DNA from: Opitutus sp. GAS368
Lineage (GTDB): Bacteria > Verrucomicrobiota > Verrucomicrobiia > Opitutales > UBA953
Length of the DNA stretch: 34,129 bases
Direction: 5' to 3'
Assembly: GCA_945882655.1 (NCBI GenBank)
Contig: CAMCWL010000006.1
Coordinates: forward strand, 1-34,129
Shown: positions 15,112-18,697 of the stretch, one piece after another
How positions within the stretch are numbered: the stretch's first letter is position 1
Layout: each line of letters opens with the position of its first letter
Notes under the pieces: model-generated
What the model was told of the DNA's origin: nothing
What the model saw: only the letters and a program-made list of their open reading frames with translations
The model's database searches: none
Translations under genes and position numbers: made by a program

Positions 15112-15795
15112 ATGGGCGAAACGAACGAAAAGACCACCTTAGCCTCCCGCCTAGGTCATAACTTCCTGACGGGCCTCTTCCTGCTCATGCCGATTGGCCT
15201 GACGCTCTACGTGGTCTCGGTGTTGCTCGACCTGATGGGCAAGTTCATCCAACCGGCGGTCGAGTTCGGCTTCGCCTGGCTCTGGCTTAACGCGAAGCTC
15301 CCCGTGCCCGACTTCACGGTCGGCCTCTACCGCCAGCTCGTGGTGATATCGTCCGCCGTGGTGATGATTTTCATCCTGATCTTCGTCGGCTATCTCTCCA
15401 AGCGACTGTTCGGAAAGCTACTCCACCGCTGGTTCGGCGCCGTGCTCGAACGCATCCCTGGCCTCGGCGCCCTCTACGGCACGATCCGCCAGATGGTCGA
15501 CGCCCTCAGCGGCCGCAACAAGGACACCTTCCGCCGCGTGGTGATGGTCGAGTTTCCCCGCCCAGGCATGTGGACCATCGCTTTCGTGACCCATGAGCAA
15601 CCGACCGTCTTTAGCGAGGCCATCGGTAAACAGGTCGTGAACGTCTTCATCCCGGCCGCACCCGCGCCGACCACCGGCGTCATCCTGCACCTTTCTCCCG
15701 AAGAAGTCCGCGAGACGAAACTGACCGTCGGTGAAGCCCTCGGCCTGCTGATGAGCTTCGGCTCCGTCGTCCCCAAGCCGGAAAGCAAGGAGTAG
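15112..15795 (+). CDS. DUF502 family membrane protein
   Basis: LGHNFLTGLFLLMPIGLTLYVVSVLLDLMGKF...RIPGLGALYGTIRQMVDALSG...FPRPGMWTIAFVTHE. Confidence 0.88.
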   Translation: MGETNEKTTLASRLGHNFLTGLFLLMPIGLTLYVVSVLLDLMGKFIQPAVEFGFAWLWLNAKLPVPDFTVGLYRQLVVISSAVVMIFILIFVGYLSKRLFGKLLHRWFGAVLERIPGLGALYGTIRQMVDALSGRNKDTFRRVVMVEFPRPGMWTIAFVTHEQPTVFSEAIGKQVVNVFIPAAPAPTTGVILHLSPEEVRETKLTVGEALGLLMSFGSVVPKPESKE

Positions 15796-15800
15796 GCCGG

Positions 15801-16403
15801 ATGTCCGCGTCGAGCCTCCGCTGCCTGGTGCTGGGTCGCGATCCCTCCGGGGAATCGCATTCCCTGCTCACGCTGCTAGAGCCCGCCGAAGGCATTCTCC
15901 GCTGCTTGATCCGGACGCAACGCGGCAACGGCACCACCCTACCGGACCTCTTCGACGAAGGCGAAGTGAGCCTCGAACGCGCCAAGGACGGCGGCATCCG
16001 CTTCGCCCGCGACTATCGCCTGCTCACGCGCCGCGCTGGCCTCGCCCGCGACCACCGCACACTCGAACGCGCCTGCCGACTCGCATCGATGCTGCGCAAG
16101 AACCCGCCGCCGCCCGAATCCGCCGAGGTCTGCTATCGTATCGCGCTCGAGACGTTCGACGCCATGGCCGCACGCCCGCGCGCCGACTGCGCCTATTTCA
16201 AGAGCCTCTGGCTCATGCTTAAAGACGGTGGCTGGGGCGTGCATGAGCAGTGGTTCACGCGCCTCGGCGCCCGCCAAGCCCACGCAGCAGCGATTCTCGG
16301 CCAGCCGCTCGACGGGCAGACGACCGATGAAGAGACGGTCGCGAAGCTAGCGGTCGACCTTGAACGCTGGGCCGCCGGTGAAGCCCATTTCGTCCTGCCC
16401 TGA
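15801..16403 (+). CDS. recO: RecO-like DNA repair protein
   Basis: SSLRCLVLGRDPSGESHSLLTLLEPAEGILRCLIRTQRGNGTTLPDLFDEGEVSLERAKDGGIRFARDYRLL resembles the RecO OB-fold region; divergent C-terminus without an evident zinc motif. Confidence 0.65.
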   Translation: MSASSLRCLVLGRDPSGESHSLLTLLEPAEGILRCLIRTQRGNGTTLPDLFDEGEVSLERAKDGGIRFARDYRLLTRRAGLARDHRTLERACRLASMLRKNPPPPESAEVCYRIALETFDAMAARPRADCAYFKSLWLMLKDGGWGVHEQWFTRLGARQAHAAAILGQPLDGQTTDEETVAKLAVDLERWAAGEAHFVLP

Positions 16404-18697
16404 TGCGCATCGACATCAAGGCGAAGCGCGTCGAGCTGAGCGCGCAGGAGTTCGCGACGTTCCGACCCGGTCCGGGCGCCGGTGCCGGCGGCGCTCCTTG
16501 GCGCGCCGAAGCGGGCCGCCAATGGCACGAGACCATGCGCAAGGTCGCCGAAGCCGAAGGCCAGGGCTGGCAGTTCGAACGCACCATCGCCTGCGAAGTG
16601 GGCGCCCTTGGCTGGACGATCGCCATCACCGGCCGCGCTGACCAATGGCTCGAGACAGCCAATGAGCTCCGCATCCGTGAAATCAAAACGATCAGCCTGA
16701 AGCTCCCGCGGAAACCAGAGTTCCTCATCGGACGCTACGCCCACCACTTCCTGCAGCTCGCGGCCTACTGCCACGCCGCCCGTTTGGGCTCCGGCGCCCG
16801 CGAGGTGAAAGGGGAATTGATCTTCATCGACCCCGCGGACGGCACCCGCCAGCCCGTCGCCCTACCCCGCTCCGCCGAAGCCGACCTGCTCACGCAGGCC
16901 GAGACGCTCGCCGCGCACGCCGAGAATCGTCGGGCCAGTCATGCGCGACTGCTCAACCTCCCAGACCGACTCCCGTTCAAGGAACCACGCCCAGAGTGGC
17001 TCCAATGCTGCGCCGACCTCGACCAAGCCGGTCTCGATTCGCCCACGCGCCTCCTCGTCGCGCCGACGGGCTTCGGCAAGACCTCCGCGGCCTTGCGCCA
17101 CGGACTCGGCCTCCTCCGCGGCGGCCGCGCCGGACGCCTGCTCTACCTGACCGGCAAGGGCACGGGACAGACGCAGGTGCTCACCGAACTCCGCCGCCTC
17201 GCCCGCAGCAACGAGCTCCGCGCCGTGCTGCTCCGCCCCCGCTCTGAACACGAGGTCGACGGCATCACCGACGACCCTGAGCAAATCCGGCGCAACTGGG
17301 CCAACGCGAAGATCGACCCGCAGCATCTCCTTGAGGAAGCCGCCGACCTCCGCCGTGTCCGCGAGATCGGCCGCATCGCGGGCGTGCCACCGTGGGACAT
17401 CACCAAAGCGATGCTCGCCCACGCCGACGTCGTCATCTGCGACTACAACTACGTCTTCTCGCCGCGTAACCGGGCCGCGCTCGAGACCGTGCCGGGATGG
17501 GATATCCATGATACGGTGCTCATCGTAGACGAAGCCCACAACCTGCCTGAACGCGCCGCGGAATGCCTCTCGCTCCGTGATTACGAACAGGCAGCGGCCG
17601 ACTTCGCCTTCACGCTCACGCGTTTCCGCGCTCCCGAAGCCTGGTGTCAGACCGCCCAGATGTGGGCCGACTTCCTCCATCGCCTACCGAAGGCCGACGC
17701 GATTTCGCCGGACGACCGTATTGAAGCGATGGCCATCGCGGAACGCATGTCCGTACTCGCCGCCGAACACCCGTTCAACACCGACGACTTGCCCGACGCC
17801 GCGAAACAGGCCGTCTGGAATGCCGCAACGTGGTCCGAACGTCTCGAAGCCGCTGACCTCGGTTGGCTCCTCTGGTCGCCGAAGCCTGGCCTGCTCAGCC
17901 TCGATTGCCTTTCCGCCGCCAAAGCCACCGGCGAACGCCTGCGCACCTTCGGCCACACCTTGCTGATGACCGCCACGCCGGGCCCGCGCGGCTCGCTCGC
18001 GGCCGACTGCGGGCTCGACCCGGATAATCTCGTGATGGTCAACGCCCTCGCGCCGTGGCGCCAAGGCGCTTACACCGTCGCGATCGACGGACGCGTGGAC
18101 ACGCGCCTTAAAACCCGCGAAGGCTACATGGCTCGCACCGGCGCTGCCCTACTCCGTCTCTCGCAAGAAGGCGCGGTCGCGGCCTTCTTCCCGTCGTATA
18201 AATATGCCGAGGCCGCGGTGAAGGAAGTACGCAACCTTGATCCGAAGGCCGACGTGGCCGTGCAACCCCGCGGACTGGGCCCTGAGGGCACCGCGCGCTT
18301 CGTCGAGGATTCACTCAACCGCTACACCATCCTCTGCCTGATTCTCGGCGGCTCGCTCGGCGAAGGCGTCGACATGCTGGGCGGTCGCATCCGTTCGGCG
18401 GTGGTGATCGGTCCGGCGCTCCCGGAGGTCAACGCGCTCCAGGAAGCCCGTCGTAAAATGTTCGTCGAAGCGGGCGCCGAAGACGCCTTCTCCTTGGCGT
18501 ACGTCCGCCCCGGTATGCGCAAGGTCAACCAAGCGCTCGGCCGACTCGTCCGTGCACCCGGCCACTCGGCGCGCGTACTCCTGCACTGCCGCCGCTTCGC
18601 CGACGAAGCCTATCGCAGCCTGCTTTCGACGGAATACGGCGACCCACAGGTATTGACCGACGACGAGGAATTCGTGCGCTGGTCTGCCCGTAGCTGA
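16403..18697 (+). CDS. PD-(D/E)XK nuclease-like domain fused to XPD/DinG-type superfamily 2 helicase
   Basis: N-terminus: GRADQ...IREIKT...FLQLAAYC. Helicase: Walker A APTGFGKTSAALR, CDYNYVFSPRNRAALE, DEAH box IVDEAHNLPERAAE, LLMTATPG, motif VI NQALGRLVRAPG. Start overlaps recO stop (TGATG). Confidence 0.87.
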   Translation: MRIDIKAKRVELSAQEFATFRPGPGAGAGGAPWRAEAGRQWHETMRKVAEAEGQGWQFERTIACEVGALGWTIAITGRADQWLETANELRIREIKTISLKLPRKPEFLIGRYAHHFLQLAAYCHAARLGSGAREVKGELIFIDPADGTRQPVALPRSAEADLLTQAETLAAHAENRRASHARLLNLPDRLPFKEPRPEWLQCCADLDQAGLDSPTRLLVAPTGFGKTSAALRHGLGLLRGGRAGRLLYLTGKGTGQTQVLTELRRLARSNELRAVLLRPRSEHEVDGITDDPEQIRRNWANAKIDPQHLLEEAADLRRVREIGRIAGVPPWDITKAMLAHADVVICDYNYVFSPRNRAALETVPGWDIHDTVLIVDEAHNLPERAAECLSLRDYEQAAADFAFTLTRFRAPEAWCQTAQMWADFLHRLPKADAISPDDRIEAMAIAERMSVLAAEHPFNTDDLPDAAKQAVWNAATWSERLEAADLGWLLWSPKPGLLSLDCLSAAKATGERLRTFGHTLLMTATPGPRGSLAADCGLDPDNLVMVNALAPWRQGAYTVAIDGRVDTRLKTREGYMARTGAALLRLSQEGAVAAFFPSYKYAEAAVKEVRNLDPKADVAVQPRGLGPEGTARFVEDSLNRYTILCLILGGSLGEGVDMLGGRIRSAVVIGPALPEVNALQEARRKMFVEAGAEDAFSLAYVRPGMRKVNQALGRLVRAPGHSARVLLHCRRFADEAYRSLLSTEYGDPQVLTDDEEFVRWSARS

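What the first reader, a model, noticed from the sequence alone, without database searches (positions are those of the whole stretch)
16403..18697. XPD/DinG-like helicase with PD-(D/E)XK domain that appears to lack the Fe-S cluster cysteines
Seen: the Walker A, DEAH and motif VI segments are intact, and so are the nuclease-like GRAD...EIK...QLAAY motifs. The stretch between Walker A and the CDYNYVF motif (LLRPRSEHEVDGITDDPEQIRRNWANAKIDPQHLLEEAADLRRVREIGRIAGVPPWDITKAMLAHADVVIC) has no cysteine before the final one in ICDYNYVF. Established: XPD/DinG/Rad3-family helicases normally carry four cysteines here that bind a 4Fe-4S cluster. Inference: a cluster-free lineage, possibly with a different way of separating strands or coupling to the nuclease.
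Basis: partly seen in the sequence, partly recalled or inferred. Interest (0 to 1): 0.66.

Follow-up and report, generated by a model that had tools for sequence, protein, structure and literature searches.

The report
Repair helicase-nuclease without its iron-sulfur cluster
This gene encodes a DNA helicase fused to a DNA-cutting domain whose close relatives carry an iron-sulfur cluster; this bacterial lineage, and at least three others in the same order, lost the cluster's cysteines but kept every catalytic part, giving a natural test of what the cluster is for.

Summary
The 764-aa ORF at 16403-18697 is a PD-(D/E)XK nuclease fused to an XPD/DinG-type helicase (the 'EndoDinG' subgroup; nearest solved structure 9kqh, Finegoldia magna DinG). 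It has no cysteine between Walker A and C346. 'A cluster-free lineage' is supported and can be sharpened. The cluster is ancestral: 4 Cys in all 20 same-class outgroups and in 9kqh. All 45 genomes of the window's family in which I read the region lack it. In the 88-row tree set, cysteine counts are all-or-none (63 rows with 3 or more, 25 with 0-1). An independent SecA tree needs four separate losses (a single clade is rejected, AU p=0.005). The last ligand, Cys in 55/55 cluster-type rows of the order, is Pro in 23/25 cluster-free ones. All nuclease and helicase catalytic residues are retained, dN/dS is low, and MutY/Nth cysteines and SufBD are intact, so the loss is specific to this enzyme. 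The gene overlaps recO. Best reading: an active nuclease-helicase of recombinational repair with a protein-only 'pseudo-FeS' wedge. Cluster-free DinG relatives are known (S. aureus DinG, CasDinG), but a 2025 review describes the EndoDinG FeS as conserved: a new variant of a known kind. No activity was measured.

The parts
16403..18697 (+). Cluster-free EndoDinG: PD-(D/E)XK nuclease - XPD/DinG-type SF2 helicase fusion, 764 aa
   Evidence: profile hit to 9kqh over profile positions 7-760, E 4e-142; Foldseek E 1e-44
16403..16972 (+). N-terminal PD-(D/E)XK nuclease domain (residues 1-190): H42, E59, D80, E93-x-K95, Q118xxxY122
   Evidence: Pfam PDDEXK_1; all seven residues invariant in both cluster-bearing and cluster-free homologs
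17060..17083 (+). Walker A, APTGFGKT (residues 220-227)
17216..17422 (+). Pseudo-FeS subdomain (residues 272-340) inserted in motor domain 1; no cysteine; keeps H283, W299, R320, G323, P330
   Evidence: AF2 block pLDDT about 84-95 over 267-345
17387..17389 (+). P329, the position of cluster ligand C4 (VCP/ICP in cluster-bearing relatives)
   Evidence: Cys in 55/55 cluster-type rows of the order; Pro in 23 and Asp in 2 of 25 cluster-free rows
17528..17539 (+). DEAH box, motif II (residues 376-379)
18530..18553 (+). Motif VI, QALGRLVR (residues 710-717)
15801..16403 (+). recO-like gene (weak RecO_N match) directly upstream; its TGA stop shares one base with the helicase ATG (TGATG)
   Evidence: the same recO-helicase order (within about 1.1 kb, same strand) in 28 of the 80 order rows, from 9 families, with and without the cluster
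15112..15795 (+). DUF502 membrane protein gene upstream of recO; part of the conserved neighbourhood
   Evidence: Pfam E 4e-30; conserved with recO

Best explanation
The gene is an orthologue of the EndoDinG nuclease-helicases that has lost its [4Fe-4S] cluster by descent. Shown by sequence: the ancestral four-cysteine site was lost in the window's family and at least three more times in the same order, while the pseudo-FeS subdomain, both motor domains, the Arch and the nuclease site were kept under purifying selection. Inferred: the protein loads on single-stranded DNA, moves 5'->3' with ATP and opens the duplex at the fork with a protein-only pseudo-FeS wedge (packed by the conserved W299/H283/P329-P330 core in place of the cluster), as cluster-free S. 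aureus DinG and CasDinG do. Its PD-(D/E)XK domain cuts one of the resulting strands. It probably works with RecO in RecFOR-type gap or end repair, because the two genes overlap here and stay together across families. The cluster would then be a stability or redox feature of this enzyme rather than a requirement for unwinding.
For: Cysteine census all-or-none: 63 rows with at least 3, 25 with at most 1, none with 2 in the 88-row set. All 20 class outgroups carry C...C...C...CP, as does 9kqh. Four losses on the SecA tree, all four required by well-supported branches; AU test rejects a single clade, p=0.0047. All nuclease and helicase catalytic residues invariant in both classes. dN/dS 0.02-0.18 over the whole gene and 0-0.33 over the pseudo-FeS region where it could be computed (synonymous sites saturated in L073 and, for that region, L119). 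AF2 pLDDT 90.4, pTM 0.90, with best PDB match 9kqh over 770 columns, TM 0.73. In the same genus or family MutY keeps C-X6-C-X2-C-X5-C and Nth keeps four C-terminal Cys, and SufB/SufD are in the genome, so cluster supply was not lost. recO synteny. Cluster-free SaDinG and PaCasDinG have helicase activity (PMC12345164, PMC11981726).
Against: No activity or cofactor was measured. Disrupting the FeS motif in E. coli DinG and archaeal XPD abolishes unwinding (stated in PMC12345164), so a lineage that lost the ligands might have lost unwinding and kept only translocation or nuclease action. The gene is absent in one sister genus (g4, 8 genomes), so it is dispensable. The helicase gene tree alone does not reject a single origin of the cluster-free forms (AU p=0.10). 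The RecO link is synteny only.
Confidence: 0.7

Rival explanations
1. The cluster-free forms have lost true helicase activity. The motor only translocates on single-stranded DNA (or remodels protein-DNA complexes) and feeds the nuclease.
For: FeS disruption abolishes unwinding in E. coli DinG and archaeal XPD (PMC12345164, citing its refs 5, 23, 24). The metal-binding loop is shortened by about 7 residues (median 55 vs 62 aa).
Against: Naturally cluster-free SaDinG and PaCasDinG unwind DNA (PMC12345164). All motor motifs are invariant, and the subdomain is retained and modelled confidently rather than deleted.
Confidence: 0.22
2. The protein still binds a metal or cluster through other residues (for example H283 with other conserved Cys/His).
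For: H283 is conserved in 100% of family rows and 92% of all cluster-free rows; C123, C346, C502, C536 and C729 are mostly conserved in the family.
Against: H283 is equally conserved (89%) in cluster-bearing rows. The conserved cysteines are in separate domains, and C502, C536 and C729 are shared with cluster-bearing forms. No set of four is specific to the cluster-free class.
Confidence: 0.05
3. One loss early in the order, with the cluster regained or acquired by transfer in other families.
For: On the helicase gene tree a single cluster-free clade is not rejected (AU p=0.10); several cluster-free rows are long branches.
Against: The SecA tree rejects one clade (p=0.0047). Family f21 holds both states (L345, L346, L351 and L356 with Cys; L347, L348, L352 and L354 without). 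Regaining four ligands at the same positions is improbable.
Confidence: 0.08
4. Assembly artefact or decaying pseudogene.
For: One same-genus genome (G030/L037, contig named tig...) has several in-frame stops.
Against: Intact ORF in the window and in most of the 69 of 79 family genomes with a match; dN/dS well below 1. The G030 stops fit indel errors in a single assembly.
Confidence: 0.01

Closest known systems
EndoDinG subgroup of DinG-like proteins (Bdellovibrio bacteriovorus HD100 DinG; review PMC11981726); 9kqh, Finegoldia magna DinG with ssDNA/ADPNP
   Same: N-terminal PD-(D/E)XK nuclease with the same H/E/D/E/K residues, MD1-FeS-Arch-MD2 helicase order; whole-length profile match to 9kqh, E 4e-142, and structure match TM 0.73
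   Different: The review describes a conserved CCCC FeS motif for EndoDinG; here all four are absent and C4 is Pro
Staphylococcus aureus DinG (ExoDinG with pseudo-FeS; 8zef, 9ii8)
   Same: DinG-type helicase fused to an N-terminal nuclease, cluster-free pseudo-FeS subdomain
   Different: Its nuclease is a DnaQ-type 3'-5' exonuclease, not PD-(D/E)XK; different subgroup and a separate loss
CasDinG of type IV-A CRISPR (7xf1, 8v44)
   Same: Cluster-free pseudo-FeS DinG helicase; PADLOC typeIV_DinG model matches this protein (E 5e-52)
   Different: No nuclease domain in CasDinG; no CRISPR genes recognised in the neighbourhood here (recO, pyrD, DUF502); only weak sequence match to CasDinG chains
XPD/Rad3 family (Thermoplasma XPD 4a15, human XPD)
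   Same: Same motor domains and the insertion between motif Ia and motif II; XPD C4 sits in CPY/CPF, aligned with GVPP here
   Different: XPD has the cluster and no nuclease domain
Cas4 / AddB / RecB-family PD-(D/E)XK nucleases
   Same: Nuclease fold and catalytic residues (Cas4 model E 4e-4)
   Different: Cas4/AddB carry their own cluster cysteines in the nuclease domain (general knowledge); none are conserved here except C123 within the family

Membership tests
EndoDinG (DinG-like with N-terminal PD-(D/E)XK) | N-terminal PD-(D/E)XK domain with H (alpha2), E (beta2), D (beta3), E and K (beta4) | tested here: met
   H42, E59, D80, E93, K95 invariant; Pfam PDDEXK_1
EndoDinG (DinG-like with N-terminal PD-(D/E)XK) | XPD/DinG motor domains with Arch and FeS insertion, whole-length homology to a known member | tested here: met
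   9kqh E 4e-142 over nearly the whole profile; Foldseek TM 0.73
EndoDinG (DinG-like with N-terminal PD-(D/E)XK) | Conserved CCCC motif binding [4Fe-4S] | tested here: not met
   0 of 4 cysteines; C4 = P329. It descends from cluster-bearing members, so it is a derived, cluster-free branch rather than a standard member
EndoDinG (DinG-like with N-terminal PD-(D/E)XK) | Endonuclease activity | not testable with these tools
   The review reports it as unpublished for Bdellovibrio; needs biochemistry
XPD/Rad3/DinG FeS helicases | SF2 motifs Walker A, DEAH, motif VI QxxGRxxR | tested here: met
XPD/Rad3/DinG FeS helicases | Four cluster cysteines between motif Ia and motif II | tested here: not met
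XPD/Rad3/DinG FeS helicases | 5'->3' helicase activity | not testable with these tools
   needs purified protein
CasDinG (type IV-A CRISPR) | Encoded with csf genes and a CRISPR array; no nuclease domain | tested here: not met
   No CRISPR genes recognised among the window ORFs; nuclease domain present
ExoDinG | N-terminal DnaQ-type 3'-5' exonuclease | tested here: not met
   N-terminal domain is PDDEXK_1

The most novel reading that the evidence does not exclude
Within one bacterial order a repair helicase-nuclease shed its 4Fe-4S cluster at least four times, each time all-or-none and almost always by the same C4-to-Pro replacement, while keeping full unwinding and cutting activity. This would mean there is an easily reached protein-only solution for the XPD/DinG strand-separation wedge, and that the cluster is dispensable for mechanics and kept elsewhere for redox control or stability.
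Probability: 0.4. Interest if true: 0.62.

Novelty: new variant of a known kind. Interest (0 to 1): 0.45.

Why it matters
Why XPD, FANCJ, DinG and related helicases carry a 4Fe-4S cluster (mechanical wedge, structural pin, or redox/charge-transfer sensor) is a long-standing question, usually probed with destructive cysteine mutants. Here nature supplies orthologous pairs about 40% identical, with and without the cluster, in the same domain architecture and often in the same recO neighbourhood, and several independent losses to compare. These pairs allow the mechanical and redox roles to be separated directly. They also show that annotating this subgroup as an iron-sulfur protein by homology alone is unsafe in this order (Opitutales, judging by record titles).

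Tried and rejected
(1) Relocated cluster or alternative ligands: no cysteine/histidine set specific to the cluster-free class. (2) Loss of the cell's ability to make clusters, or a general purge of FeS from DNA repair: SufB/SufD present; MutY and Nth keep their four cysteines. A first search with the 17-residue EndIII_4Fe-2S model was too weak to decide. (3) RecB/AddA replacement: in the window's family all eight genomes of genus g4 lack this gene and have RecB-like matches (partial in G011), while most of genus g1 is the reverse. Over the order the association disappears: by my count, RecB-like in 28 of 123 genomes with this gene and 17 of 100 without. I drop it. (4) PDDEXK_1 search of the own genome: zero hits, but it also missed this very protein, so it is uninformative. 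(5) CRISPR-associated CasDinG: ruled out by context and domains. (6) Single origin of the loss: not rejected by the gene tree, rejected by SecA. (7) Pseudogene: rejected by dN/dS. (8) Papers on 9kqh: none in the library.

Full report
WHAT IS THERE. The ORF at 16403-18697 (+ strand, 764 aa) is a fusion of an N-terminal PD-(D/E)XK nuclease (PDDEXK_1, residues 29-176) and an XPD/DinG-type helicase (DEAD_2 305-391, Helicase_C_2 588-743). A profile built from its relatives matches the solved Finegoldia magna DinG (9kqh) over profile positions 7-760 with E 4e-142. The AlphaFold2 model (pLDDT 90.4, pTM 0.90) has 9kqh as its best PDB match (E 1e-44, TM 0.73, 770 columns), followed by XPDs. A 2025 review calls this architecture EndoDinG and describes its FeS motif as conserved CCCC (PMC11981726).

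THE OBSERVATION. In the XPD/DinG fold the fourth cluster ligand lies in a VCP/ICP motif; here it is GVPP, with P329 at the ligand position. In all 45 genomes of the window's family (coded f1, four of its five genera) in which I read the region, the cysteines are absent. The fifth genus, g4, lacks the gene.

THE FAMILY ONCE HAD THE CLUSTER. All 20 homologs fetched from other orders of the same class have the four cysteines, as do most of those fetched from other classes of the phylum (L342 keeps only C4). Within the 88-row tree set the counts are all-or-none: 63 rows have at least three, 25 have at most one, and none has two. Among cluster-type rows of the order, C4 is Cys in 55/55. Among cluster-free rows it is Pro in 23 and Asp in 2. 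The stretch from the conserved R-x-E-H to C4 is about 7 residues shorter in the cluster-free class (median 55 vs 62), so the metal loop is gone and the rest of the subdomain remains: H283, W299, R320, G323 and P330 are widely shared between the two classes.

HOW MANY LOSSES. The helicase gene tree, built without the FeS columns, needs 6 changes or 7 Dollo losses, but several cluster-free rows are long branches and a single clade is not rejected (AU p=0.10). An independent SecA tree of 56 of the same genomes gives four origins (f1; f21; f2+f12; f3), all four required by well-supported branches, and rejects a single clade (AU p=0.0047). Later sampling found cysteine-bearing members inside f21 (L345, L346, L351, L356), which can only raise the number. 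L342, outside the class, has lost C1-C3 but keeps C4, and may be another case. L350 (f2) has stray cysteines but Pro at C4.

STILL A WORKING ENZYME BY SEQUENCE. Nuclease H42, E59, D80, E93, K95, Q118, Y122 and helicase Walker A lysine, DEAH and the motif VI Q/G/R/R are invariant in both classes. dN/dS against same-genus relatives is 0.02-0.18 for the whole gene, with the pseudo-FeS region constrained too (0-0.33; values for L073 and part of L119 are saturated).

NOT A GENERAL LOSS OF IRON-SULFUR. The genome has SufB and SufD. In the same genus or family, MutY keeps C-X6-C-X2-C-X5-C and the Nth-like glycosylase keeps four C-terminal cysteines. The loss is specific to this helicase, as far as these controls reach.

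CONTEXT. The gene starts inside the stop codon of a recO-like gene (TGATG), downstream of DUF502. The recO-helicase order is found within about 1.1 kb on the same strand in 28 of 80 order rows from nine families, with and without the cluster; many rows had too little upstream sequence to judge. This is evidence for a shared role with RecO, by association only.

MECHANISM. Most likely an active 5'->3' helicase-nuclease in RecFOR-type recombinational repair, with a protein-only pseudo-FeS wedge. Precedents are S. aureus DinG and P. aeruginosa CasDinG, both cluster-free and both active helicases (PMC12345164; PMC11981726). The main rival is a motor that translocates without unwinding, since FeS disruption kills E. 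coli DinG and archaeal XPD helicase activity (PMC12345164). Only biochemistry can decide.

NOVELTY. Cluster-free DinG-type helicases are known in other subgroups. I found no report of cluster-free EndoDinG, or of repeated loss within one order; the literature held is partial. Hence new variant of a known kind, interest 0.45.

Noticed in passing
16401-16405: recO stop and helicase start overlap (TGATG), suggesting translational coupling; DUF502-recO-EndoDinG order recurs across families of the order.
   Followed up: partly
L201, L211, L230 (C-terminal part of the Nth-like ORFs): The Nth-like glycosylase of this family has C-X4-C-X4-C-X2-C instead of the classical C-X6-C-X2-C-X5-C spacing, which probably explains why the EndIII_4Fe-2S Pfam model misses it.
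   Followed up: no
L342 (G735, another class of the phylum): EndoDinG relative that has lost C1-C3 but keeps C4 (HVCPF): possibly an intermediate or a further independent loss.
   Followed up: no
L158, L165, L168, L169, L171, L172: Several family f14 homologs have much longer open frames (about 850-970 aa) than the window protein (764 aa); where the extra sequence lies was not examined.
   Followed up: no
L037 / G030:C15:72663-74957: Same-genus genome with several in-frame stops in this gene; contig named tig..., so probably indel errors of one assembly rather than a pseudogene.
   Followed up: no
G011-G018 (genus g4 of the window's family): These eight genomes lack EndoDinG and carry RecB-like proteins (partial match in G011), the reverse of most of genus g1; the pattern does not hold over the whole order.
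   Followed up: partly
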